Shown here: piece by piece, positions 1 to 11,963 of the stretch
Numbering within the stretch: the stretch's first letter is position 1
How the letters are laid out: every line of letters starts with the position of its first letter
IMG/VR virus record: IMGVR_UViG_3300020442_002503
Location: 1 to 32,896 of that record
Source: a virus
Direction: 5' to 3' (one strand)
Length of the DNA: 32,896 nt
Translations under genes and position numbers: made by a program
Notes under the pieces: generated by a model
Told to the model about the DNA's origin: nothing
Seen by the model: only the letters and a program-made list of their open reading frames with translations
The model's database searches: none

Positions 1-858
1 GCCCTTAAAAAGAGATGGGAATGGTTTGTTTGTATCTCGGCATATGTATGTGAATAAGACATTTGATGCCAATCCGTATTCCTGTATAAGCTCCGGTATG
101 TCCCAGCCTAAGTCTGGATAACTTGTGTGGCAGTATAGGTAATATTTTTTATCTTCAGAGGCGTCTAAGAATTTTTTGAATGCCGCAAACAAATCTGGAT
201 ATAGCTTCCTTCTTTGGTTTCGCATAACTGTTCCGATGACTTTGTACTCTGGATCAATTCCGTGATCTTCCTTATGCTTTCTTTTGTTCTCTACTGGTTG
301 GTAAGCGGGGTGTGCTGAAGGTGGTGCGCTACCAAGGTGGTTGATTTTACCACCGCTCTGATCTCTAAGTATTTCTCCAGCCCAATCTGAATATGTAAAG
401 CAAGCATCTGCTGACTGGTAGGTTGAAATCCACTGCCTAGCTTGAGGTCTAGCGTCAACAGTTGGCATTAAAGCCCACTTAAAGTAGTTTCTGTAGGGAG
501 ACCTTTCTATAAAATCTACCATCCAAAAGTCTCTAATATCACACACTATATCTGGGAAAAAGTCCAAACAGACGTGTTCAAATATGCCTTCGCCAAACTG
601 GTTGGTCGGGTTGGAATTGAAATGATCCAGCTCTTCTTTAGTCGCTTTAGGTTCATTGTCTTGATTAGGCATCACGCCATAATACTTCCAAGGCAAAGAT
701 AGGCCTCTAGGATCATTTCTTTCTCCGTAGGCAGATAACTCCGCTAGCTCATACTTTCCGGTGGAGTTCAAATAGTTCAGCGTCTCCCTCACGTAGGTGG
801 CGTATCCAGTGTTTAGAAACGTGGCTTCACCACAAAAAAGAATTCTTTTCTTACGCAT
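1..858 (-). CDS. GT4-like glycosyltransferase, 3' end cut by window edge
   Basis: An open frame of 286 codons begins at the ATG at 858-856 and runs off the left edge, so the C-terminus is missing. It starts with MRKKRILFCGEATF and a following N-T-G-Y-A-T segment, the usual opening of a GT-B fold sugar transferase, in which a glycine-rich loop follows the first strand. A later segment (KVIGTVMRNQRRK, then a strand reading YLYCHTSYPDLGW) resembles the second Rossmann domain, where the nucleotide-sugar donor binds. The ATG overlaps the end of ssb by 8 nt (ATGCGTAA), so translation is probably coupled. It is one of at least six sugar-transfer genes in the window. Donor and acceptor cannot be told from the sequence. 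Confidence 0.75.
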   Translation of the reverse strand, partial: MRKKRILFCGEATFLNTGYATYVRETLNYLNSTGKYELAELSAYGERNDPRGLSLPWKYYGVMPNQDNEPKATKEELDHFNSNPTNQFGEGIFEHVCLDFFPDIVCDIRDFWMVDFIERSPYRNYFKWALMPTVDARPQARQWISTYQSADACFTYSDWAGEILRDQSGGKINHLGSAPPSAHPAYQPVENKRKHKEDHGIDPEYKVIGTVMRNQRRKLYPDLFAAFKKFLDASEDKKYYLYCHTSYPDLGWDIPELIQEYGLASNVLFTYICRDTNKPFPSLFKG

Positions 859-1189
859 TATACTCACTTTCCGATAATTTATCTGAGTCTACAGTTGCAA
901 AGTCAAACTCGTTAACTCTGAAGACAATATCCTTGTTATCTTTCGACACGTTGCGAGCTGACGCAAGTATAGAAATCTTAGAGCCTTTTTTGGCAAATCT
1001 AGCTATGGTTTCTGCTCCGGTATGCCAAGCCTCAAATTTAAGGAATGAGGGTATCCTGCTCTTCTCACCAGTGCTTTTAGCTCTTCTGTATGCATATGTG
1101 ACGAGTGTAAAGTTTATAACACTTACCCCGTTGACCTTACGCATCACTGGGTCATCTGCTAGAAACCCAGTAAATGAACAAACATTCAT
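851..1189 (-). CDS. ssb: Single-stranded DNA-binding protein, OB fold
   Basis: This 112-residue protein has the layout of the bacterial/phage SSB OB-fold: an opening VCSFTGFLADDPVMRKV strand pair, a central INFTLVTYAYRR segment, then FLKFEAWHTGAETIARFAKKGSKISI, matching the SSB pattern of an aromatic-containing strand followed by 'A..i.ky..KG..i.v'. It would coat single-stranded DNA at the fork. It is shorter than E. coli SSB (about 178 residues) and lacks the long linker and the D-D-D-I-P-F tail that recruits partners, ending instead in a modest acidic stretch, SDKLSESEYNA. It lies 61 bp after the polymerase C-terminal gene, with its own TATAAT box and an AGGAG Shine-Dalgarno 5 nt before the ATG. 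Confidence 0.85.
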   Translation of the reverse strand: MNVCSFTGFLADDPVMRKVNGVSVINFTLVTYAYRRAKSTGEKSRIPSFLKFEAWHTGAETIARFAKKGSKISILASARNVSKDNKDIVFRVNEFDFATVDSDKLSESEYNA

Positions 1190-1250: not shown

Positions 1251-2822
1251 TTAAATTTCATATATTTTATTAACTATAAAAGAGTCGTCTTTTTCAGAGA
1301 CAGACCCACAAAAAATCAGGTTGTTGCCTTCGTACAAAACATATTGATACTTATCTCTCGTCTTTGGGAAAACAACAACACTATCTAAAGAACAAGTTTC
1401 ATCCTCTATGGTTAAGAATGACATGTACTTACCTTTAGACTCTCCCTTCTTAACCTTGTAATTAGAAACTCTATTAACATTTCCAGCAACACACAAGCCC
1501 TTACCCTTCTTGCCGTCAATTATCTCTTTACAAGTAGTGTTTGCGCTTGATGTGTCAGAAGCCTCAATCTTAGACAAAGATACCGGACACCCCAAAAACT
1601 TTACTTCTTGAGCTATTACCCAGCTAGGATCATCGTCCATTTCATATGGAGGGTTTTCTAAGAAGTGTATCTCGTTTTGTACCGCTTGACTTCTGTCTGC
1701 CCTACTAGTTCCGCCGCCATTCTTTTTTGTTGGTGCTAAATCTACAAAGCAGTCTTTCAAAGATTTCCACTTTCTCTTTGGGTAATTTTCTATAACCCAG
1801 TTTGTCTCTCCTTTAGATAGGCCTCTGAATATTTCATATTCGTATAGGGCTCTATTCCTAGTTATGGTACCGTCGAAGCCTCTAAAAAATCCAACTGAGG
1901 CTAATGCTTTAAAGGCTGTGGACGATATTTTTTGGGAAAGGCCTAGAAGTATTTCCATCCAGCACATCTCTGAAATCGGCTTAGGGTGACTATCTTTAAG
2001 CTCCTTTATTGCAGAAATAACTTTGTCTCCAGTCTTGCCGGTAAGTGACTTTATGTCCTTTACGCCAAACATAATTCCATTTTCATGCTCATGAAACTTT
2101 GCGTAGTGGGTTTTTATGCTTGGTGTCCTAAGCTCTAAGTCAAAAAGTTTTGCCTCTGAAACCAATTCGTATATTTCTTGGTGCGGATCTTGCTTATCTA
2201 CTGCGTGATAAAAATACGCCAGAAAGAATTCTTTGACATGGTTTGCTTTGTACCAAGCACTTGCGTAGGAATTCATTGCATATGCTACTGAATGAGATTT
2301 GTTAAACGCATATCTACTTGACTTTTCAATCCAACTAAATATCTCTTCAGCCTCTTCTTTTGTAACAATAGCCTCTTTCTCTGCGCCCTCAATGAAAGAT
2401 TTTTTAACCTTGGCCATGAGGCTAGCTTTCTTTTTACCAATCGCTTTTCTCAGTATGTCAGCTTCTTGTAAATTAAAACCGGCTATCTTCTGCGCAATCA
2501 TCATTGACTGTTCTTGATATACTAAAACCCCATAAGTATTACCTAGTATACTCTCTAGAGACTCATGCAAATATTCAACCTCGTCAAGACCATGCTTCCT
2601 ATCGACATAGTGCTGTGTCATTGACTTTCCATTGCTAATCGCTTTCAAGCAGCCCGGCCTGATCAAAGCAATAAGTGCGGAAAGTTCCTCCATATTAGAG
2701 GGAGAAACCTTCTTAGACCAAGATCTTCCTAGATTGCTTTCTAGCTGAAATACCCCTTTTGTCTTCCCCTCTTTGAAGAGATCCCAAGTTTTATCGCAGT
2801 TATAGTCAATAGGCTTAGACAT
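1251..2822 (-). CDS. dnaE: Split DNA polymerase III alpha, C-terminal half (fingers to OB domain)
   Basis: This 523-residue protein starts where the palm of DnaE ends. It has the fingers signature GVFQLES at 23-29, RPGCLK near 55-60, DRKHG, YGVLVYQEQ at 97-105, ADILRKAIGKKK at 121-132 and FNKSHSVAY at 173-181, all highly conserved in bacterial DnaE. Residues about 425-523 look like the OB domain (CVAGNVNRVSNYKVK through VVVFPKTRDKY). No tau-binding C-terminal domain follows, and I see no clear internal clamp-binding motif. The ATG at 2822 is chosen because GGAG stands 6 nt upstream; a start six codons earlier is possible. It overlaps the exonuclease stop by 8 nt (ATGTCTAA). It carries none of the catalytic aspartates, so it must pair with the product of 5116-3485 to work. 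Confidence 0.9.
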   Translation of the reverse strand: MSKPIDYNCDKTWDLFKEGKTKGVFQLESNLGRSWSKKVSPSNMEELSALIALIRPGCLKAISNGKSMTQHYVDRKHGLDEVEYLHESLESILGNTYGVLVYQEQSMMIAQKIAGFNLQEADILRKAIGKKKASLMAKVKKSFIEGAEKEAIVTKEEAEEIFSWIEKSSRYAFNKSHSVAYAMNSYASAWYKANHVKEFFLAYFYHAVDKQDPHQEIYELVSEAKLFDLELRTPSIKTHYAKFHEHENGIMFGVKDIKSLTGKTGDKVISAIKELKDSHPKPISEMCWMEILLGLSQKISSTAFKALASVGFFRGFDGTITRNRALYEYEIFRGLSKGETNWVIENYPKRKWKSLKDCFVDLAPTKKNGGGTSRADRSQAVQNEIHFLENPPYEMDDDPSWVIAQEVKFLGCPVSLSKIEASDTSSANTTCKEIIDGKKGKGLCVAGNVNRVSNYKVKKGESKGKYMSFLTIEDETCSLDSVVVFPKTRDKYQYVLYEGNNLIFCGSVSEKDDSFIVNKIYEI

Positions 2823-3492
2823 ATAGGTCTCCGTTTGCAAATGCCTTTTCGATCTTTAGATTTTGGTAGACTGCTCTATGTGTTTTCATGAACTTAATCA
2901 TGATGTTTGCCGTGTCCTTAACGTCCTGTAGGGCATCATGCGCGTTTTCTTTACTTAAACCCATTCTCTCTCTCATTGAATCCATGCTTATCGACCTCAC
3001 GTCTGGGTCTGCTTCAGTCCACATAAATACATTGTCCATGACGTCTATCTTATATATCATATGAAATAGTTTCTGCCTGTTTGTTTTAGGGTCATATTGA
3101 CCGAACTCCTTGCAAAGACGGTTGACAATAATCATATCAAACCCTATAATATTGAAACCTGCTGGAATTGGAGCGAAATACTGCGTCCCCTTCCAATTAT
3201 ACTTATCTACAAAGTTAGCAAATTTTTTCCAGACAGTTTTTAGATGAGGAGCTTTTGCCAGATTCTCTCTAGTCTTCCCTGTTATCTTCAAGGCCTCATC
3301 TTCGATTGGGTCTAGACCAGCAGCGATAGCTTTTTCATCATCGAGTATTGGGCGTATCTCGCTGTTAAATGTACCCTTCGGTTTCAGGCTTCTGCCATCT
3401 AGCGCTATAGCCGCAATCTGTGTAGGCTGGGTCTTGTGCGGGTTTCTGCTACCAGTTTCAAAGTCAAATACAATAATATCTCGGTTAGCCAT
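2815..3492 (-). CDS. DEDDh 3'-5' proofreading exonuclease between the two polymerase halves
   Basis: A 225-residue DnaQ-type exonuclease. Exo I is VFDFETG with D10 and E12, Exo II is FNIIGFD with D119, and Exo III is HDALQD with H185 and D190, so all four metal ligands and the general base of the DEDDh class are present. It would remove mispaired 3' nucleotides for the polymerase. The gene lies between the two halves of DnaE and overlaps each by exactly 8 nt (ATGGCTAA upstream, ATGTCTAA downstream), a layout suited to equal co-translation and assembly of N-alpha, exonuclease and C-alpha. AAGGA lies 8 nt before the ATG. No clamp-binding motif is obvious at the C-terminus. Confidence 0.9.
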   Translation of the reverse strand: MANRDIIVFDFETGSRNPHKTQPTQIAAIALDGRSLKPKGTFNSEIRPILDDEKAIAAGLDPIEDEALKITGKTRENLAKAPHLKTVWKKFANFVDKYNWKGTQYFAPIPAGFNIIGFDMIIVNRLCKEFGQYDPKTNRQKLFHMIYKIDVMDNVFMWTEADPDVRSISMDSMRERMGLSKENAHDALQDVKDTANIMIKFMKTHRAVYQNLKIEKAFANGDLYV

Positions 3493-5116
3493 TAATAAGT
3501 TCCTTAATTTTCATTATCTTGTCAAGTAGGTTAATTCCTAATATGTCAAATTTAACGTGACCAAGCGCTTCTAGGTCAGCCATTTCTAAACCAGCTATCT
3601 TTTCTTCAGATGACTTTTGGTTTACCATTGGGCAAACATGTTTTAATTCATTTGCGGATATGACAACCCCAGCAGCGTGCTTGCCTTGGTTTCTGAACGT
3701 TCCTTCTATTCTTATAGCTTGGTCAAACTGATCTGCATAGTCGCCCTCTAGGTAGCCAGAATCATTTATATAACAAAAATCTCTTAGCTCCTCTGGGTTG
3801 TTTATAAGAGCCCATCTTATTATAGATCTGTCTTCCGCATCCATCTCTTCTAATTGGTCAGATATATCTGCTTCATTAGGTATGCTTTTTGTCATCTCAT
3901 TCATCTCGCTGAAAGAGCAGGCGTTTGTAACCCTGAGAACCTCCTTCAGTGCGCTTCTACCCTGTAGGCGACCAAAGGTAATCATCTGACTAACATTGCC
4001 GTGACCATATTTTTCTTTAAGGTATAGTATTATTTCATCACGCATATTTCCGGGAACATCAACGTCAATATCAGGTAGCGAGACATGGTCTTCGGTATTT
4101 CTCCCGCTGTTGTAGAATCTTTCAAAGAGCAGATCAAACTCAATAGGATCAATCTCAGTTATTCCTATCATGTATGAAATTAAACATCCAGCGGCAGAAC
4201 CTCTGCCCGGCCCAGAGAGCCAGCCTCTTGCCTTAACATAATTCACGATGTCTTGAACTATTAAGAAGTATCCGAATAAGTTTGCTTGATCTATAACTAG
4301 AAACTCTTTCTCAAACCTTTCTAGATATTCAGCTTTGCTTTCTTCGTCATCTACTTTACCGCCGTCTATTAAACGCTTCTTCCAGCCTTCTCGACAGAGT
4401 TGTTTAAGTTCTTCTTCTTCGGATTGCTTGCATGGAAATTTAGGGAGGGAAGGCTTGCTTAGTATCTCGTAGTCTTCGCATAGAGATAGTATTTTTGAAA
4501 CACTATCTAGACTCAACCCCTCTGAGCACATCATCTCTGTGATCTCTATACTGTCAGGTAAGTGGTAGTCAGAGCGATTGAAGAACTTTTTAACCGAGTC
4601 TGCTTCGCCACTTTTAAGTTTCTTATTTATCTTTGGAAGGGTCGTCTTGAGTGAAGAGCATATTAATATCCTGTGAAGCTCAGCATCTTCCCTGTTAGTG
4701 TAGAATATGTCTTTAAGTGAACTGTCTTTTATAAACGTCATCTCTTCTTTGACTGGTGAATCTGCTAGGCTTTTGCTTATGCAGATAAGATTTCCTGCGG
4801 AGCAAGTTTTAGATAGCAGGGCTTTGTCGGGATTTCCATCTTTGTTTATAGATGAAACAATAGATATTAAGTCAAACCAACCGTTCTTATTTATGGCTAT
4901 CAGAGAGAAGTCGTCAAATGCGCAGCCTATAATCGGCTTTACGTCATTTGCCCTGCAGGCTTTATAGAAAGATATAGCTCCAGATATAGACTTATAGTCT
5001 GTTATTCCGCAGAATTTATAGCCGTTGTCGCTGCATTTTTTTGCTAGTTCGGCTGGCTTAGAAAAGCCCTTGAGTAAGCTGTAGTGGGTATAGTTGCATA
5101 TTGGAGCCCAGTCCAT
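3485..5116 (-). CDS. dnaE: Split DNA polymerase III alpha, N-terminal half (PHP + palm/thumb)
   Basis: This 543-residue protein covers the PHP domain and the whole polymerase active site of DnaE. GPGRGSAAGCLISY is at 302-315, PDIDVDVP at 348-355 supplies D349 and D351, and VKFDILG at 521-527 supplies D524; these match E. coli D401, D403 and D555. It stops 20 residues after the third aspartate, at the palm-fingers boundary. The PHP domain (about 1-270) looks inactive: the usual HxHxxYSLLDG motif reads CNYTHYSLLKG and the usual ITDH reads ITDY, so metal ligands are lost, which fits proofreading by the separate exonuclease. AAGGA sits 6 nt before the ATG. A palindrome-covered TATAAT box lies about 45 bp upstream. 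Confidence 0.92.
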   Translation of the reverse strand: MDWAPICNYTHYSLLKGFSKPAELAKKCSDNGYKFCGITDYKSISGAISFYKACRANDVKPIIGCAFDDFSLIAINKNGWFDLISIVSSINKDGNPDKALLSKTCSAGNLICISKSLADSPVKEEMTFIKDSSLKDIFYTNREDAELHRILICSSLKTTLPKINKKLKSGEADSVKKFFNRSDYHLPDSIEITEMMCSEGLSLDSVSKILSLCEDYEILSKPSLPKFPCKQSEEEELKQLCREGWKKRLIDGGKVDDEESKAEYLERFEKEFLVIDQANLFGYFLIVQDIVNYVKARGWLSGPGRGSAAGCLISYMIGITEIDPIEFDLLFERFYNSGRNTEDHVSLPDIDVDVPGNMRDEIILYLKEKYGHGNVSQMITFGRLQGRSALKEVLRVTNACSFSEMNEMTKSIPNEADISDQLEEMDAEDRSIIRWALINNPEELRDFCYINDSGYLEGDYADQFDQAIRIEGTFRNQGKHAAGVVISANELKHVCPMVNQKSSEEKIAGLEMADLEALGHVKFDILGINLLDKIMKIKELING

Positions 5117-5153
5117 ATTCGTTCCTTCAACACAAATTTCAATTTAACTTTGT

Positions 5154-5168
5154 CACTATATTATAGTG
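5154..5168 (-). promoter_or_regulatory. Palindrome over a TATAAT box upstream of the polymerase genes
   Basis: CACTATATTATAGTG is a perfect 15-bp palindrome (7-bp arms, one centre base) and contains TATAAT on the minus strand at 5165-5160. It lies in the 92-bp gap before the split polymerase genes. A palindrome lying over a -10 box is the usual geometry of an operator for a dimeric repressor. No good -35 hexamer is present (GTGTAA at 17 bp). The regulator is unknown. Confidence 0.5.
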
Positions 5169-5208
5169 GGGGCAGCTGGTTTTTACACAAATAATATCTA
5201 AAACTGCT

Positions 5209-5862
5209 TTAACAAAGATCCTTAAAGATTTTATCTGCCCTTTGGAATGCTATTTCTTCCTTTGTCGCATAAAGCAAGCCTCTATATGTTCTTTCTCCCA
5301 CTCTAGATTCTTTGTCTTCTAAGAATTTAAAGTCTTTGTGGCTTTTGAGTATGTCTGCAATTATTTTTGACCCCCACTCCTTGGCCGTAGCAAGTCTTTT
5401 AAGCGGCGGGTTGGAGTCGTGAGATATTATATTCGGTATGTCATTTTTTAAGACGTGAAAAAAGTCTGTGGACGCGCTGGGTATCCGGTGGTCACCATCT
5501 ATTATAACCAAATCTATGTCGCTGGGGCAAGCCTCTGACCAGAAAACATCGCTTTCTAAGTTATGAACATTAACAGCCTCTTTTTTTGCACAATAGCTTA
5601 TGGCCTCATCAAGGTTGCTTGTCTCTTCGGGGCGGTATTGCCAAGGTTCTACCAGATGTAGATTAAATTGCTTACCCTTGTCTAGGGCGGCCAGAAGGGC
5701 ACAGGTAGAATATCCCATGTAGCTACCTATCTCAACTATAGTTTTAAAATTATTTTCCATGACTATATTATGTATAATATTGACATGTCTTTCATCCATT
5801 ATCCAGTCGGAATGTTCGCATGACAATACGCATGGATATTTTTCAAAGCAGACTTTGTGCAT
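5209..5862 (-). CDS. Class I SAM-dependent methyltransferase (Methyltransf_24-like)
   Basis: A 217-residue protein with Rossmann methyltransferase motifs: motif I VEIGSYMGYST (about 43-53, SAM-binding glycine turn), an acidic residue after the second strand in LHLVEPW, and DIDLVIIDGDHRIPSAS around 115-131, which matches the D-G-D-H motif of the Methyltransf_24 / TylF-like group. Such enzymes often methylate sugars or small molecules. It follows a GT77-like glycosyltransferase by 34 nt, so modification of a glycan is plausible but inferred. A weak Shine-Dalgarno (AAGGA) lies 10 nt before the ATG. The gene ends 41 bp before the palindromic promoter of the polymerase genes. Confidence 0.75.
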   Translation of the reverse strand: MHKVCFEKYPCVLSCEHSDWIMDERHVNIIHNIVMENNFKTIVEIGSYMGYSTCALLAALDKGKQFNLHLVEPWQYRPEETSNLDEAISYCAKKEAVNVHNLESDVFWSEACPSDIDLVIIDGDHRIPSASTDFFHVLKNDIPNIISHDSNPPLKRLATAKEWGSKIIADILKSHKDFKFLEDKESRVGERTYRGLLYATKEEIAFQRADKIFKDLC

Positions 5863-5896
5863 TTATCTTCAATCCTTAATATCTAAAAGAGGACTA

Positions 5897-6577
5897 TTAA
5901 ATTATCCAGTGTCCGTACTTCTTCATATCTTCTATTTTTATATCCGCACCAATTGCATTGTAGTGAACAGCAATTCTCTCACCTCCCCATTGACATAGAG
6001 CACCTCTCCATATTGGCCCATTGCAAAACAGAGAAGCGTCTAGCATGTTATAATCAACGTCTTTTTGTTGTAGCCTGTTGTTTATCAATGTCTGGTCATA
6101 AGCCCTGAGATCCGCAACCGGACTGGGTGAAAATATCATCTTTGACAAACTAGAGCTTTTTGCATAGAAAAATCCTGCACAAGCGTCTCCGTCCCAATCC
6201 AACATGAAGCTACAGTCTTTTTTACACTTCATTAGGCGTGTTAGGGGGTTGCTGAACAGGAATACGTCAGAGTCAGAATAAAGTATGTCATTGCCTAGAG
6301 AAAGCTCTCGATGAACTATCCTAAGTTTTTCATACATCAGGGCTTCATAGCCAGCCTCTCGCCAGTTAGGTAAAAGTAATACTGGGGTATTGCTTTGTGT
6401 CTCCCATCTTATAACCTGTGAGCCTACGGCAAAGCTTTTGACTTGTTTATAACACATGTCATCTAAACAGTATATTGTTAGCAAGCTATGAATGTCAAGA
6501 CTCTTAAGATTGGCATAAAAATTCTTAATATATTCTATATAGCCAAGATTACCATATGTAATTATTTTATGACTCAT
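5897..6577 (-). CDS. GT77-like nucleotide-diphospho-sugar transferase
   Basis: A 226-residue protein with a GT-A fold pattern. The metal-binding DxD motif lies in ILYSDSDVFLFSNP (about 98-111), followed by GFFYAKSS and a DQTLINNRL segment, an order typical of the GT77 / Nucleotid_trans family (YSDxDvvfl.nP, then g.f..a, then dQ..fN). It would move a sugar from an NDP donor to an unknown acceptor. It overlaps the gene upstream by 4 nt (ATGA) and is followed by a methyltransferase gene. No signal peptide or membrane segment is seen, so the product should act in the cytoplasm. Calling it GT77 rather than another GT-A family is from motif memory only. Confidence 0.7.
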   Translation of the reverse strand: MSHKIITYGNLGYIEYIKNFYANLKSLDIHSLLTIYCLDDMCYKQVKSFAVGSQVIRWETQSNTPVLLLPNWREAGYEALMYEKLRIVHRELSLGNDILYSDSDVFLFSNPLTRLMKCKKDCSFMLDWDGDACAGFFYAKSSSLSKMIFSPSPVADLRAYDQTLINNRLQQKDVDYNMLDASLFCNGPIWRGALCQWGGERIAVHYNAIGADIKIEDMKKYGHWII

Positions 6578-7203
6578 ATTGTTATTAGGCTTCTTGCTTC
6601 TTCATTATAGCTCAGGAAACTATTCATTGGTGGGAACCAGTAATTCCTAGAATGATTAAGGTTATTAAACATGTTGCCATTCTGCGGGCAGCAACAAAAG
6701 TCTATGAGAAAAAGATTTTCTTTATCATGTCTATCCTTAAACATCTTTGTGTAATAGTAAAGATTTGTTATATATTGAGCCTCATTTCTTATAGCCTCAC
6801 CTACCTTAAAGCCAATCCTAACCCCCTTGCCGCTAGTAGATACGTATGAAAAAAGTATATCTTGATCGTCTACTGTTCTGTTAAATAGCCTTTCAGCATC
6901 GTCATTTACTGCAAGCTCTGTATTTGACTTGTCATCGACTACCCAGTGGTCATGATAATCTAGCTCGGTTACTATAATTTTTACCGCGTTATTTTTATAG
7001 TCAATTCTGCGGTATATAAAGCTATGAGAATCCCACGGTGGTACATAGAAGCTTTCTTCGTAAGACTTGTAAAGCGAAAATAATGGTACTTTTCTTGGAT
7101 CTGATCCTTGATGCCGCGCTTGTGATTCAAATAGGAAATCCTTAAGGTCTTTTTCTTCTACTTTACAGACTTGTCCATCAATATAAAAAGTGTTAATTTT
7201 CAC
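6574..7203 (-). CDS. Hypothetical protein with an SGKG motif
   Basis: A 209-residue acidic protein with a GTG start at 7203 and no strong Shine-Dalgarno. I do not recognise it with confidence. The stretch ILFSYVSTSGKGVRIGFKV (about 115-133) followed by a helix with YYYTKMF resembles the YVSpSGkGlK motif of the VirE_N/BT4734-like domain found beside some primases, but the expected downstream residues are not obvious. A cysteine triplet (DFCCCPQNG) lies near residue 170. It sits between a membrane CxxC protein and a GT77-like transferase, away from the replication genes, which gives no help on function. Unknown function is the safe reading. Confidence 0.6.
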   Translation of the reverse strand: MKINTFYIDGQVCKVEEKDLKDFLFESQARHQGSDPRKVPLFSLYKSYEESFYVPPWDSHSFIYRRIDYKNNAVKIIVTELDYHDHWVVDDKSNTELAVNDDAERLFNRTVDDQDILFSYVSTSGKGVRIGFKVGEAIRNEAQYITNLYYYTKMFKDRHDKENLFLIDFCCCPQNGNMFNNLNHSRNYWFPPMNSFLSYNEEARSLITI

Positions 7204-7536: not shown

Positions 7537-8748
7537 TTAAGAAAATAGATCAGTAATCACTTTTCCTGAATTAGCTATCTTCATAGGTCTGCCGCTTTTG
7601 CTCGTAAAAGTAGTGTTCAAGGATATACCAAGAGCTTTACATACAGAGGCCATAACATCTTGCGAACTGTATGGCTCTGTTTCAACCCGTGTTCCGTCTG
7701 AGTTGGTTTCACCAATGGCTATACCGCCATTCATACCAGCTCCTCCGACTACAACACTCCAGCTTCGTGCCCAGTGGTCACGGCCAGCGTTTTGGTTGAT
7801 ACGAGGTGTACGACTAAATTCGCCCATCCATATGATAGCTGTATCCTCCAGTAACCCTCTTTCTTCTAGATCCTCTACTAAAGCACTCATGCCTTTATCA
7901 AGCATGGGTAACTTGTTGTCTCTTAATGTTGGGAATATGTTTTGGTGATTATCCCATCCACCTAAGTTTACTTCTATAAAAGGGACTCCAACCTCGACAA
8001 GTCTTCTTGCCATTAAGCACGACTTGCCAAAGTTGTTGTCTCCATATCTATCTTTAACCGCTTCAGGCTCGCCTGCGACCTTGAACGCTTCCATTTGTTC
8101 GCTAGTCATTAGGCTAAAGGCCTGTCTTAATACATCTCTGTGGTCGCTAGCAATAGAGCCTCGCTTTTGATTTATAAAACCATTTTCTATAACGTCTAAA
8201 GCATATGCTCTTTGGAAGAATCTCTGATCTGGCTTGATGTCTAGGTTGCGAACCCTCCCGTCGCTGTTAACGACAAACGGTGAATGGTTCATGCCTAAAA
8301 AGCCAGCTCCAATGCTTCCTCCTCCTACAGAAACAAATTGCGGAATCTCTAGATTTTCTCGCTCAAGCTGGTGAGATAATACGGCTCCATAGCTAGGATG
8401 CTCAATGGTTGAGTTGGGAACATACCCCGTGTGCATGTAATATCTCCCACGCATGTGGTCAGCTTCACGAGTACTCATGGATCTAACGATTGACATGTGG
8501 TGCATTTGCTTAGCCATCAAAGGCATGTGTTCACAAATTTCCACGTCTCCAGTTGTGGATATTGGTCTGAATGGCCCGCCTGTAGGCGCTTTCGGCTTTA
8601 AGTCCCAAATATCCATTGTTGAAGGGCCACCGCTCATCCATAGTAGAATGGCAGATTTATTGTTCTTACGCATCTCGTCTGCATTAGCGTTTAGTAAGTC
8701 TACGAGTGGAAGTGAAGAAAATCCAGCTAAAAAACTTCGTCTGTTCAT
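7537..8748 (-). CDS. Tat-exported DUF1501 protein A
   Basis: A 403-residue DUF1501 protein. It opens MNRRSFLAGFSSLPL, a twin-arginine signal, followed by the family hallmarks ILLWMSGGPSTMDIWDLKP, LGGWDNHQNIF and a C-terminal GEFSRTPRINQNAGRDHW with a VVVGGAGMNGG strand. DUF1501 belongs to the alkaline phosphatase/sulfatase-like superfamily and is very abundant in Planctomycetota; the biochemical reaction is not established. The ATG at 8748 is chosen because AAGGA stands 7 nt upstream and it places the RR motif at the N-terminus; an upstream ATG at 8787 would overlap the PAP2 gene. The protein should fold in the cytoplasm and be exported by host Tat. A paralogue lies at 11950. Confidence 0.85.
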   Translation of the reverse strand: MNRRSFLAGFSSLPLVDLLNANADEMRKNNKSAILLWMSGGPSTMDIWDLKPKAPTGGPFRPISTTGDVEICEHMPLMAKQMHHMSIVRSMSTREADHMRGRYYMHTGYVPNSTIEHPSYGAVLSHQLERENLEIPQFVSVGGGSIGAGFLGMNHSPFVVNSDGRVRNLDIKPDQRFFQRAYALDVIENGFINQKRGSIASDHRDVLRQAFSLMTSEQMEAFKVAGEPEAVKDRYGDNNFGKSCLMARRLVEVGVPFIEVNLGGWDNHQNIFPTLRDNKLPMLDKGMSALVEDLEERGLLEDTAIIWMGEFSRTPRINQNAGRDHWARSWSVVVGGAGMNGGIAIGETNSDGTRVETEPYSSQDVMASVCKALGISLNTTFTSKSGRPMKIANSGKVITDLFS

Positions 8749-8759
8749 TTTGTCGTCCT

Positions 8760-9410
8760 TTACAGTTTGTGCCTTATATCTTCCCACAAAGCTCCTGAGA
8801 TTACCATTGACGCATCATTGTCTGTGGGATAGTGTACACCTTGCAAGCATCTGGCTAAACCAACCGTGCCCACAAGCTGATAAAATTCTGATGAGTATTC
8901 TGGGTGCTCCTCCGAAGCTATGGCTGCTATCAATCCTGCATACACAGTATGCCCAGATGGGTAGGCCGGTGTCTGGTGAGTATCTGTTTTCATTACCTTT
9001 ATATTGTAACCCAGAAGATCCCCTAGCTGCTCCGGTCTTGGCCTATTGTACTGCCATTTTAGGTTTTTTACAACTGGCCAACATATGTTCCAAGCCCTTT
9101 TAATCCTTTGCTTTGGTAATCTTATCCTGCGTTTCTTTGCTACGTCTAAGTAAAGACGTAATGGATCGTCGTCTACTAGCCTGACTAACTCTTCTTCTTG
9201 GGGTGTTCTTAGTCTTGTTAGATCACTAAGGTATTCTAGCTCATCCCTAGTTACGTCACTGTCATTAGCAGGAGGAGCCGGAAGAACGCCTTTCCAATAT
9301 ATAGTGACTTGTTTGGATATCTTTTGTTTTTTAGGTATATCAAAAGAGTACTTTAGTGTCTCTAGCCTTTTGTTGTTTAAGGCAGCGTCTGCCTCGTGTA
9401 TGTATTTCAT
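8760..9410 (-). CDS. PAP2-superfamily phosphatase, soluble
   Basis: A 216-residue protein with the three-part PAP2 active site: LKWQYNRPRPEQL (K118, R123, P124), YPSGHTVYAG (PSGH at 151-154, catalytic-base His) and ARCLQGVHYPTD (R187, nucleophile-type H193, D197). PAP2 enzymes remove phosphate from lipid phosphates, nucleotides or small acid-soluble esters, and vanadium haloperoxidases share the site. No membrane segments or signal peptide are visible, so it resembles the soluble phosphatase forms I associate with large phages rather than lipid phosphate phosphatases. The ATG directly abuts the stop of the secreted Pro/Gln-rich gene, and the DUF1501 A gene follows 11 nt later. Substrate unknown. 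Confidence 0.8.
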   Translation of the reverse strand: MKYIHEADAALNNKRLETLKYSFDIPKKQKISKQVTIYWKGVLPAPPANDSDVTRDELEYLSDLTRLRTPQEEELVRLVDDDPLRLYLDVAKKRRIRLPKQRIKRAWNICWPVVKNLKWQYNRPRPEQLGDLLGYNIKVMKTDTHQTPAYPSGHTVYAGLIAAIASEEHPEYSSEFYQLVGTVGLARCLQGVHYPTDNDASMVISGALWEDIRHKL

Positions 9411-9791
9411 TTACCACCTAAATTGAAAAAAGAACCCGTGAAACGGAGCTGGGTAAATTGGTTGTGGCTGAATGACTACCGGAGGCTGAATAATTACAGG
9501 TGGATAATAAGACGGGACTCTATAATACCTGAAGTGAGGATTTACAGGCCTGTAATAATTATAGAAACCAAAACTATGTTTAGGCTCAACTCTTGGTTGC
9601 TGAGGTTGTGTCTGAGGTTTCTGCCACTGTTGTTTTCCGGGAATTGTAGGTCTAGCAGTAGGCGGTCTTGTGAAATCTCTAGGCTGACTTCTGACAACTT
9701 GAGGTGGTTTTATTACTTTGCGTTGCGGTTGTTCCGCGTTAGCGGACATAGGAACAAACGAAAAGCATAATAATACTAGTAAATGTTTCAT
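9411..9791 (-). CDS. Secreted Pro/Gln-rich low-complexity protein
   Basis: A 126-residue protein with a classical Sec signal peptide (MKHLLVLLCFSFVPMSANA, likely cleavage after ANA) and a mature part rich in Pro, Gln, Arg and Tyr: repeated PPQV, QKPQTQPQQP and IIQPPVVIQPQP stretches, then an aromatic tail FHGFFFQFRW. No enzymatic domain is visible. Such chains are found in cell-surface, peptidoglycan-associated or adhesive proteins. CAAGGAG lies 7 nt before the ATG. The next gene (PAP2) starts with no gap, so both are probably made together. Secreted low-complexity proteins are unusual in a phage replication region; acquisition from the host is possible but not shown. Confidence 0.65.
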   Translation of the reverse strand: MKHLLVLLCFSFVPMSANAEQPQRKVIKPPQVVRSQPRDFTRPPTARPTIPGKQQWQKPQTQPQQPRVEPKHSFGFYNYYRPVNPHFRYYRVPSYYPPVIIQPPVVIQPQPIYPAPFHGFFFQFRW

Positions 9792-9817
9792 CTTAAACTC
9801 CTTGTAGTTTAAATTGA

Positions 9818-9847
9818 GTGCCCATCAAAATCCTTTTTGAAAGGCAC
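9818..9847 (-). other. Imperfect hairpin in the 104-bp gap before the secreted-protein gene
   Basis: The gap 9792-9895 holds no TATAAT box. It does hold an imperfect hairpin: outer arms GTGCC/GGCAC, a 3-nt internal bulge on each side, inner arms CAAAA/TTTTG and a 4-base loop. A second small GGCG/CGCC stem lies near 9864-9877. No T-run follows, so it does not look like an intrinsic terminator; an RNA-stability or processing element is possible. Confidence 0.35.
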
Positions 9848-9895
9848 CCATTTCTTCTTCCGATGGCGCCTCTCGCCGTTGGGTCGAGATCGAAA

Positions 9896-10063
9896 TTAGC
9901 TAATGCAATTATCACACTTACATGTATCAATATCGCAAATGCAATCAGCATCTACACAAGGGCATTCGTTTACGCAAATGCCACAAGCTACAGGCTGTCC
10001 GTCCATACAACCAAGTGTCATCAGGACACCAAAAACAAAAATAAAACTAAGTATCGTCTTCAT
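9896..10063 (-). CDS. Tiny cysteine-rich exported (possibly lipo-) protein
   Basis: A 55-residue protein. Residues 1-18 (MKTILSFIFVFGVLMTLG) form a signal-peptide-like hydrophobic segment ending at Cys19, possibly a lipobox, although T-L-G-C departs from the usual L-[AS]-[GA]-C. The mature part is packed with cysteines in closely spaced pairs (CGICVNECPCVDADC, then CDIDTCKCDNC) and aspartates, as in small metal-binding or disulfide-knotted peptides. The ATG at 10063 is fixed by an unusually complete Shine-Dalgarno (TAAGGAGGTGATC), the best in the window, implying high expression. It sits between the basic-domain protein and the secreted Pro/Gln-rich gene. No known family recognised. Confidence 0.65.
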   Translation of the reverse strand: MKTILSFIFVFGVLMTLGCMDGQPVACGICVNECPCVDADCICDIDTCKCDNCIS

Positions 10064-10079: not shown

Positions 10080-10688
10080 CCATTTTTTGCAAGACCAATA
10101 GCGTGCCTTCCAGCGAGGGCCGGGAGTATCACACCTATGTCTTGCTCTAAAACTTTTTCTACGTTTTGGATTATCCTTTTTAATTTCCATATTAGGATCT
10201 CCAAAGTTAACTTTAACAACATTTCCTTTATCGTTCTTTACATATACAGAAAATTTCTTTGGGCCATCAGGTGTTCTGAATGGCTTTCCAAGCTTAACCT
10301 TTTTGCCTTGGTATTCCGCTGCTTTAACCAGCATTAAAGTTCTTCCGTCTTTTTTGTATACACCTTTCCTCTCGTACTCATAAACCTGACCAGTTTTTGG
10401 GTCTTTGTACTTGTAGGCAGCTTTGGTTCCAGAACCTTTCTTTCTGCAACTTCCGGGTTCGCCTTCCTTTGTGTTGGGCACCCTTTCGTAACCTTCCCAG
10501 CAAGCGCCGGTCTTGTCGCTCTTTGTGTAATCAACCGCATCCGCAACAGAAATTTCTTCCTCTTCTTCGCCAAAGTCAATATACTCTGCCTCTGAAGGGA
10601 TATAAAAGTTACATGGCGTTAATTCTTCTTCAGAACCAAAAGCCTCAAAATAAAATTTGTCGTCAGCTTCACTCACATAGTCTCTCAT
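10077..10688 (-). CDS. Phage protein with C-terminal basic YWSC domain
   Basis: A 203-residue protein in three parts: an acidic N-terminus (about 1-50, ending FGEEEEEIS), a CWEGYERVPNTKEGEPGSC module (about 62-81), and a basic C-terminal domain with SVYVKNDKGNVVKVNFGDP, then KRRKSFRARHRC and ARYWSCKKW. From memory, both the C..GY..VPgTK...GSC module and the KVNFGD...RRKSFRARH.C...YWSCK domain recur as small modules in marine phage and large-virus proteins, often at the ends of unrelated proteins; their function is not established. The four conserved cysteines suggest structural metal or disulfide sites. It overlaps the DUF1501 B stop by 1 nt (TAATG). Confidence 0.7.
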   Translation of the reverse strand: MRDYVSEADDKFYFEAFGSEEELTPCNFYIPSEAEYIDFGEEEEEISVADAVDYTKSDKTGACWEGYERVPNTKEGEPGSCRKKGSGTKAAYKYKDPKTGQVYEYERKGVYKKDGRTLMLVKAAEYQGKKVKLGKPFRTPDGPKKFSVYVKNDKGNVVKVNFGDPNMEIKKDNPKRRKSFRARHRCDTPGPRWKARYWSCKKW

Positions 10689-11950
10689 TACAGTATTACC
10701 TTTGCTTCGCCCTCTAATAAGTATCTTGGTCTACCACCGTTGTCTATACGCTGTTCTCCTTGGTTTATTCCAAAGTGGTCAAACAAGGTCGCTTGCAAAT
10801 CTAATGGCCCTACAGGGTTTTCGATTGGACTGTACGACCTATCGGAAGAACCGATGGTTCTGCCTGACTGATAGTTTCCTCCAGCCATCATCATAGGAGT
10901 TATTGCGGGCCAGTGGTCTCTACCCGCATTAGCGTTTATCTTTGTTCTACCAAATTCTCCAGTAACAACAAGAAGCACTTTTTCATTAAGGCCTCTGTCC
11001 CATAAGTCCTGAAGAAATCCTGATATGGCCTTGTCTATAGGAGCTACTTTTCCCTTTAGGGCTGTAGAGATATTGCTGTGCATGTCCCATCCGCCATAAT
11101 GTAAAGTTACGAATCTAGTACCATGCTCTATCAATCGTCTAGCTAGAATTAGCTGCTCACCAATGTCATTAGCTTTTTCAGATCCGTAAAGAGATTTTGT
11201 GCTTTCTGATTCTTGATCTGTAGCAAAAGCGTCTTTAGCTGATCCTAATATTACATCATATGCCTGACCTTTATAGAAACCAACAGACTCAGCTCCTGTT
11301 CCTGATATATCTTTAGCTGCTGAGCCTAAAGCGCCTAGCAGTTCTTTTCTATTGCTAAATCTATTTAGCTCTATACGTGGAGTTAGATTATCTTTGTTGG
11401 AAGGATCAAACGGTTTGTAAGCACCGCCAAGCCAAGCTCCTTCATCGCCCTCGATTTTGCCTTGCTTAACATAAGAGGGAACCCCATTTTGTGGATGGTT
11501 AGTTCCGTACACGGCAGATACTATAGATCCAAAAGAGGGGTATTTAGCGATTGATGTTGTTGTTCTTTCTGGGTTGTAATGCCCAGTCATCATGAAGTGC
11601 GTACCCTGTCTGTGAGAAGAATCCTTATGACTGAAAGAATTTACTACATTTAGTTTAGAGGTATGTTTTGAAAGCTCTTGCCAATCAGCACCTAAAGTAA
11701 TGTTTGTGCTTGCGTCATGTATGGCACCGTTTACTGGCTGCCATTCAGTTGGTACTGTGTCATTAGGAGCATGGAAAGTCTCAAACTGGGTTGGGCCACC
11801 ACCAAGCCAGATCCAAACAACAGCTTTGTCGTGTAAAGAAGACGGGTCTTGTGCAGCAAAAGCCTCATCTGAAAACCCAAGCGCGGTCATTCCAGCGCCA
11901 ATAGAACCAATTCTAAGAAAATCTCGCCTGTCAAAAAATAAATCTAACAT
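10688..11950 (-). CDS. Tat-exported DUF1501 protein B
   Basis: A 420-residue DUF1501 protein, clearly divergent from the one at 8748. It begins MLDLFFDRRDFLRIGSIGAG, a strong twin-arginine signal (RRDFLR) with a cleavage-like AFAAQ at about 31-35. Family hallmarks follow: AVVWIWLGGGPTQFETFH, LHYGGWDMHSN and GEFGRTKINANAGRDHW with a MMMAGGNYQSG strand. A region near 255-280 with SLYGSEKANDIGEQLILARRL matches the usual DUF1501 mid-section. The ATG at 11950 has GGAGG 5 nt upstream; a TTG four codons earlier is less likely. Having two copies in one phage block suggests they act on different substrates or pair up. Function of the family is unknown. Confidence 0.85.
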   Translation of the reverse strand: MLDLFFDRRDFLRIGSIGAGMTALGFSDEAFAAQDPSSLHDKAVVWIWLGGGPTQFETFHAPNDTVPTEWQPVNGAIHDASTNITLGADWQELSKHTSKLNVVNSFSHKDSSHRQGTHFMMTGHYNPERTTTSIAKYPSFGSIVSAVYGTNHPQNGVPSYVKQGKIEGDEGAWLGGAYKPFDPSNKDNLTPRIELNRFSNRKELLGALGSAAKDISGTGAESVGFYKGQAYDVILGSAKDAFATDQESESTKSLYGSEKANDIGEQLILARRLIEHGTRFVTLHYGGWDMHSNISTALKGKVAPIDKAISGFLQDLWDRGLNEKVLLVVTGEFGRTKINANAGRDHWPAITPMMMAGGNYQSGRTIGSSDRSYSPIENPVGPLDLQATLFDHFGINQGEQRIDNGGRPRYLLEGEAKVIL

Positions 11951-11963
11951 TTTGCCCTCCAAA

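What the first reader, a model, noticed from the sequence alone, without database searches (positions are those of the whole stretch)
1251..5116. Replicative DnaE split at the palm-fingers boundary with the proofreading exonuclease gene inside the split
The N-half ends 20 residues after the third catalytic aspartate and the C-half begins just before the fingers motif VFQLES. Between them lies a complete DEDDh exonuclease. Cyanobacterial split DnaE breaks elsewhere (within the C-terminal third) and is rejoined by a split intein; no intein motifs are visible at either end here. All three genes are linked by identical 8-nt overlaps with both downstream frames shifted +1. PolC has its exonuclease inside the PHP domain of one chain; here the same idea is achieved as separate co-translated chains. 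This may be a three-part polymerase not yet described.
Basis: partly seen in the sequence, partly recalled or inferred. Interest (0 to 1): 0.85.

Follow-up and report, generated by a model that had tools for sequence, protein, structure and literature searches.

The report
Phage replicase split around its proofreader
A large, uncultivated group of bacterial viruses makes its only recognised DNA-copying enzyme (a DnaE-type polymerase) as two separate chains with the gene for an error-correcting nuclease sitting between them; the split is real, old and under strong selection, and no sign was found that the two chains are joined into one.

Summary
On the minus strand the window encodes DnaE-N (PHP+palm, 5116-3485), a DEDDh exonuclease (3492-2815) and DnaE-C (fingers+HhH+OB, 2822-1251), joined by two 8-nt overlaps. 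It is not a frameshift artefact. The N-exo-C order recurs in about 120 distinct viral loci (38-89% identical), the break sits at the same place in each, catalytic residues are kept and dN/dS is about 0.03-0.06. In 18 long relatives this is the only polymerase (no PolA or PolB), and in 23 the only DEDDh exonuclease. No intein lies at this break; some relatives carry a genuine split intein further along, at the cyanobacterial DnaE site, which serves as a positive control. The split is ancestral to the clade: the single re-fused member (L072) nests inside it. The PHP metal site is intact in basal split lineage L226 and in L072 but lost in the window's clade, so the exonuclease is the likely proofreader. 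Precedents for intein-free split phage DnaE exist: jumbo phages with distant genes (published), and in GenBank phage phiT1 (same break, no exonuclease inside) and phiST. I therefore call it a new variant of a known kind. That the three chains form one complex is inferred.

The parts
3485..5116 (-). DnaE-N: degenerate PHP domain + palm with all three catalytic Asp (D349, D351, D524), 543 aa
   Evidence: (PF07733 8.5e-71, PF02811 5e-15)
4064..4072 (-). palm catalytic motif D349-I-D351 (PDIDVDV)
   Evidence: invariant columns D349, D351; aligned with Taq D463/D465; 118/118 loci
3545..3547 (-). third catalytic Asp, D524 (KFDILG), 19 residues before the end of DnaE-N
3485..3492 (-). 8-nt overlap ATGGCTAA between DnaE-N stop and exo start
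2815..3492 (-). DEDDh 3'-5' exonuclease (D10, E12, D119, H185, D190), 225 aa, the likely proofreading subunit
   Evidence: PF00929 2.7e-16; phrog_192 'DNA polymerase exonuclease subunit' 5e-24
2815..2822 (-). 8-nt overlap ATGTCTAA between exo stop and DnaE-C start
1251..2822 (-). DnaE-C: fingers, HhH, OB, 523 aa
   Evidence: PF17657 4.5e-47; model aligns to E. coli alpha 583-1073
2299..2312 (-). RYAFNK site in DnaE-C: uninterrupted here; in relatives L072, L074, L075, L077 and L169 this is where the split intein sits
851..1189 (-). SSB directly downstream, same strand, probably same transcription unit (inferred)
   Evidence: PF00436 1.7e-9

Best explanation
This is the replicase module of an uncultivated tailed-phage lineage. 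Its C-family (DnaE-type) polymerase is permanently encoded as two chains broken in the linker between palm and fingers. The N-chain (PHP+palm, all three catalytic Asp) and the C-chain (fingers+HhH+OB) are made from adjacent, often overlapping cistrons and most likely reassemble without covalent joining into one polymerase. The DEDDh exonuclease encoded between them most likely proofreads in trans, replacing the decayed PHP active site. SHOWN by sequence: break position, domain content, catalytic residues, purifying selection, sole-polymerase and sole-DEDDh status in long relatives, absence of an intein at the break, PHP decay, and the split being ancestral to the clade. INFERRED: non-covalent assembly, polymerase activity of the pair, binding and proofreading by the exonuclease, coupled translation.
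For: Conservation: N-exo-C in 117 distinct loci (plus 4 with a further split) and no split relative covering both halves without the exo inside. The break lies 15-32 residues after the third Asp in all 116 loci where that motif was recognised. Median dN/dS: N 0.062, exo 0.032, C 0.051. Sole enzyme: 18/18 long contigs have exactly one PF07733 and one PF17657 match, with no PolB and no PolA; 23/23 have exactly one PF00929, the one in the module. Complementarity: N aligns with PHP+palm of Taq/E. coli alpha, C with the remainder (model residue 1 = E. coli 583, Taq 642). No intein: no Hint or intein family hits in P0001 or P0003, while the same libraries detect the intein in relative L074 (TIGR01445 above cut-off). 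PHP: the nine-residue metal motif is complete in L226 and L072; it is lost, with ~100 aa missing, in the window clade (motif from PMC12926913). Tree: family 100/100; fused L072 nested inside, AU p=0.008 against one clade of split rows. N, exo and C distances correlate at 0.84-0.91.
Against: No complex was modelled or measured. The exo falls in the broad DnaQ superfamily (DinG, RNase T, ExoI, PolC-exo and epsilon all score within Z 17-21.5), so its role as polymerase proofreader rests on context. No phage beta clamp was found, so processivity would need the host clamp or something unrecognised. Distance correlation is expected for linked genes. The window is a 32.9-kb fragment.
Confidence: 0.78

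Rival explanations
1. The halves are one reading frame broken by sequencing or assembly error, or a decaying pseudogene.
For: Split polymerases can come from frameshifts (PMC3919608 notes this for bacterial DnaE).
Against: About 120 distinct loci share the arrangement with a complete 225-aa gene in the gap; dN/dS 0.03-0.06; catalytic residues kept.
Confidence: 0.01
2. The two chains are joined after translation by an unrecognised intein or other ligation.
For: Relatives do carry a split intein at another DnaE site, so trans-splicing probably occurs in this lineage.
Against: No extra sequence exists at the break: N ends and C begins at the expected residues; no Hint/intein match, although the same searches find the real inteins.
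Confidence: 0.03
3. Programmed frameshifting across the two overlaps makes an N-exo-C polyprotein, a PolC-like single chain.
For: Both overlaps are 8 nt with +1 frames.
Against: Spacing varies from -23 to >+1000 nt, and unrelated genes (methyltransferase, glycosyltransferase, HNH-like, a ~75-aa ORF) sit in the gaps of relatives; each gene has its own start.
Confidence: 0.03
4. The exonuclease is a general nuclease (for example ssDNA degradation or recombination) that merely shares the operon; the polymerase is still two chains.
For: Structure search cannot separate proofreading from other DEDDh enzymes; the closest solved sequences are only weakly similar (best 7.6e-8 to PolC exo).
Against: It is the only DEDDh exo in 23 long contigs; it stays next to the polymerase even in re-fused L072; PHROG best match is 'DNA polymerase exonuclease subunit'; the PHP site has decayed while the exo is the most constrained gene.
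Confidence: 0.15
5. N and C do not form a replicase; they modulate the host polymerase, which copies the phage genome.
For: No beta clamp found, so some host replication parts may be used.
Against: All catalytic residues of palm and fingers are conserved; the module sits with phage helicase, primase, SSB, RecA and dNMP kinase; no other polymerase was found.
Confidence: 0.05

Closest known systems
Rossellomorea phage phiT1 split DnaE (PV767480 gp20/gp18)
   Same: Same palm-fingers break, no intein, adjacent genes; phage-encoded
   Different: Separate origin in the tree; a 49-aa ORF, not an exonuclease, in the gap; PHP region longer. I found no paper on it.
Jumbo-phage group 2.2 split minimal DNA polymerase III alpha (Iyer et al. 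2021, PMC7824862)
   Same: C-family phage polymerase in two chains, presumed to reassemble
   Different: Minimal (no other pol III domains), genes far apart, PolB also present
Cellulophaga phage phiST / Cbastvirus split DnaE
   Same: Two adjacent phage DnaE genes
   Different: Break lies inside the palm just before PDIDTD; no exonuclease between
Cyanobacterial split DnaE with trans-splicing intein
   Same: DnaE in two genes
   Different: Different break (RYxFN|K); rejoined by a split intein. That intein site is occupied in some relatives of the window but not in the window
PolC (Gram-positive replicase)
   Same: Proofreading DEDDh exonuclease physically associated with a C-family polymerase
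   Different: One chain with the exo inserted in PHP; here DnaE domain order and separate chains; sequence match is to DnaE, not PolC
E. coli Pol III alpha-epsilon
   Same: DnaE with inactive PHP plus separate DnaQ-fold exonuclease
   Different: alpha is one chain; this exo scores far below the epsilon model cut-off (TIGR01406 25 vs 222.7 bits)
'Fractured genes' (Dassa et al. 2009, known here from reference lists; text not held)
   Same: Relatives L072, L074, L075, L077 and L169 show split intein plus free-standing endonuclease
   Different: The palm-fingers break has neither intein nor obligatory endonuclease

Membership tests
C-family DNA polymerase, DnaE type | Palm with D..D and distal D, pol3_alpha domain | tested here: met
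   PF07733 8.5e-71; D349, D351, D524 invariant
C-family DNA polymerase, DnaE type | Fingers, HhH, OB C-terminal to palm | tested here: met
   PF17657 4.5e-47, OB 0.0028, HhH 0.021; fold aligned to E. coli alpha 583-1073, Z 22.9, rmsd 7.2 over 448
C-family DNA polymerase, DnaE type | Single polypeptide | tested here: not met
   Two ORFs separated by a complete gene
DnaE with active PHP proofreading | HHDHEH[C/H]DH metal motif | tested here: not met
   Lost in window clade; complete in L226 and L072
Cyanobacterial split-intein DnaE | IntN/IntC at the break | tested here: not met
   No Hint/intein hit in P0001/P0003; detected in L074 as positive control
PolC | Exo inside PHP of one chain; PolC domain order and sequence | tested here: not met
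   Best matches DnaE; PolC model only 4e-10
DnaQ/DEDDh exonuclease superfamily | DEDDh residues and fold | tested here: met
   D10, E12, D119, H185, D190 invariant; model pLDDT 89.5, epsilon 2gui Z 19.4, rmsd 2.0 over 164
Pol III epsilon subunit (proteobacterial DnaQ) | Curated epsilon family score | tested here: not met
   TIGR01406 25.1 bits, cut-off 222.7
Proofreading subunit of this polymerase | Physical binding to polymerase and 3'-5' editing | not testable with these tools
   No complex prediction or assay available
Jumbo group 2.2 split pol III alpha | Minimal halves from distant genes alongside PolB | tested here: not met
   Adjacent genes with PHP and OB retained; no PolB in 18 long contigs

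The most novel reading that the evidence does not exclude
An obligate three-chain replicase in which the exonuclease is also a structural bridge holding the palm chain and the fingers chain together, so that neither half is stable or active without it. This would be a PolC-like editing arrangement reached by splitting DnaE around the proofreader gene.
Probability: 0.2. Interest if true: 0.82.

Novelty: new variant of a known kind. Interest (0 to 1): 0.62.

Why it matters
C-family polymerases are treated as single large chains. Here a whole virus lineage (the alignment search confirmed at least 584 related contigs, of which the closest were examined) appears to run on a two-chain version as its only recognised polymerase, with the proofreader encoded in the gap. 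It shows that the palm-fingers linker tolerates a natural, long-term break. It gives a natural series (active-looking PHP + split; inactive PHP + split; re-fused; split twice with an intein) for studying how proofreading moved from PHP to a DnaQ-type nuclease. It also gives ready-made halves for testing polymerase assembly.

Tried and rejected
Artefact: rejected by ~120 conserved loci. Intein at the break: searched with Pfam and NCBIfam, none found, while known inteins in relatives were detected. Intron in the window: Rfam gathering search gave nothing. Intact backup DnaE, PolA, PolB or clamp in relatives: none found. The idea that the ~240-nt gap before exo in the L022-type group is an intein extension of N was rejected: N stops at the usual place and the gap holds a separate ~75-aa ORF without Pfam hits. 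The idea that fused L072 is the ancestral state was rejected by the tree and AU test, with the caveat of long outgroup branches. Identical 8-nt overlaps as a signature: rejected, spacing is variable. Structure could not place the exo in one DEDDh subfamily. Dassa 2009 and 10.1093/nar/gkr581 (a virus-replicase survey, identified from memory) could not be read. Bacterial and archaeal MAG hits (L223-L227) were not used for host assignment because misbinning of viral contigs is likely.

Full report
OBSERVATION. The window is a 32,896-bp IMG/VR virus record. Its minus strand encodes, in order, DnaE-N (5116-3485), a 225-aa exonuclease (3492-2815) and DnaE-C (2822-1251). N ends 19 residues after catalytic D524; C starts 23 residues before VFQLES.

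NOT AN ARTEFACT. Across all fetched loci and after removing duplicates, 117 loci are N-exo-C, 4 are N-exo-C-C and one is exo-(N+C)-C. No split locus that covers both halves lacks the exo between them. The end of N lies 15-32 residues after the third Asp in 116 of 118 loci; the other two did not match the motif pattern. Pairwise dN/dS medians are 0.062 (N), 0.032 (exo) and 0.051 (C).

THE ONLY POLYMERASE. In 18 long relatives (51-159 kb) there is exactly one DNA_pol3_alpha and one finger domain, no PolB, no PolA and no beta clamp. In 23 long relatives (51-174 kb) there is exactly one DEDDh exonuclease, which is the one in this module. These records are not rated complete, so absence is not proof. 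In the window the module shares the strand with SSB, DnaB-type helicase, DnaG-type primase, RecA, dNMP kinase and a PD-(D/E)XK nuclease.

THE BREAK. Profile alignment puts N on PHP+palm of Taq and E. coli alpha and C on fingers-HhH-OB. The AlphaFold model of C (pLDDT 86.5) aligns from E. coli residue 583 or Taq 642 to 1073/1121. The break is thus in the linker just after the palm, where fused DnaEs simply continue. No Hint or intein family hits either half. Positive control: relatives L072, L074, L075, L077 and L169 do carry a split intein, at the RYxFN site of the C half (the cyanobacterial DnaE intein site, from general knowledge and the NF007079 match), with a NUMOD3/DUF559-type endonuclease gene between the intein halves; NCBIfam calls the L074 intein N-terminal region above cut-off. 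Some members therefore encode the polymerase in three pieces, two of which probably trans-splice, while the palm-fingers break has no such means.

THE EXONUCLEASE. All DEDDh residues are invariant in 27 aligned relatives. PHROGs names the closest phage family 'DNA polymerase exonuclease subunit'. The model (pLDDT 89.5) matches DinG-exo, RNase T, PolC-exo and epsilon at similar Z, so fold alone does not give its function. Context does: basal split lineage L226 and re-fused L072 retain the nine-residue PHP metal motif, whereas the window's clade has lost most of it together with about 100 residues (motif as defined in PMC12926913). The same paper says inactive PHP in DnaE1 or PolC is complemented by a DnaQ-type exonuclease. 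The exo is also the most constrained of the three genes.

HISTORY. In a maximum-likelihood tree of palm+fingers with fused phage and bacterial outgroups, the family is one clade (100/100). The fused L072 lies inside it, above split lineages L224 and L226/L227, and the AU test rejects all split rows as one clade (p=0.008). The parsimonious reading is one ancient split followed by re-fusion in L072, where the exo gene now lies directly upstream. Outgroup branches are long, so this is well supported but not certain. Rossellomorea phage phiT1, which falls among the outgroups, was split at the same site independently.

MECHANISM. Most likely the two chains assemble without covalent joining and the exo edits in trans, all made from adjacent cistrons. 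Assembly, activity and editing are inferred. Whether the exo also bridges the halves is open.

NOVELTY. Intein-free split phage DnaE is known or deposited: jumbo group 2.2 (PMC7824862), phiT1, and phiST-type phages. I found no description of the exonuclease-in-the-split arrangement in the open-access library; subscription papers could not be checked. I therefore class it as a new variant of a known kind.

Noticed in passing
L072 6525-7766, L074 6528-7817, L075 4117-5394, L077 6648-7771, L169 ~9062-9946: Split inteins with a NUMOD3/DUF559 (Vsr-like) endonuclease gene between their halves, at the cyanobacterial DnaE intein site, in viral DnaE; possible new natural split inteins.
   Followed up: partly
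L169 7473-9062: A second, in-frame HNH-type intein in the fingers at RPG|C...HN|C, so this 154-kb virus has a DnaE interrupted three ways.
   Followed up: partly
L212 4271-6264: DnaE-N broken again in the palm just before SLPDIDID, the same spot as the phiST gp44/gp45 split; no Rfam intron found.
   Followed up: partly
window 7537-8787 and 10688-11962: Two DUF1501 genes; 15 of 23 long relatives carry 1-3 DUF1501 copies. Unusual phage cargo that may point to planctomycete-like hosts (inference).
   Followed up: partly
window 8760-9410: PAP2-type phosphatase gene next to a DUF1501 gene.
   Followed up: no
L022 5065-5304, L033 5058-5294, L048 4820-5044 and others: Conserved ~75-aa ORF of unknown function (KYQVWSDRH...IDEAVDKF) between DnaE-N and exo in one subgroup; no Pfam match for the L022 copy.
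   Followed up: partly
L224, L226 start of DnaE-C: Basal members have an extra N-terminal 'P-C-G-C-x-F' segment on the fingers chain.
   Followed up: no
L223 (VFHP01000007.1, SAR202 MAG, 152-kb contig): N-exo-C module inside a contig binned with a SAR202 genome; a virus, prophage or misbinned contig.
   Followed up: no
L255 (PV767480) 3345-6627: Cultivable phage phiT1 with an independent palm-fingers split of DnaE, a practical test system.
   Followed up: partly
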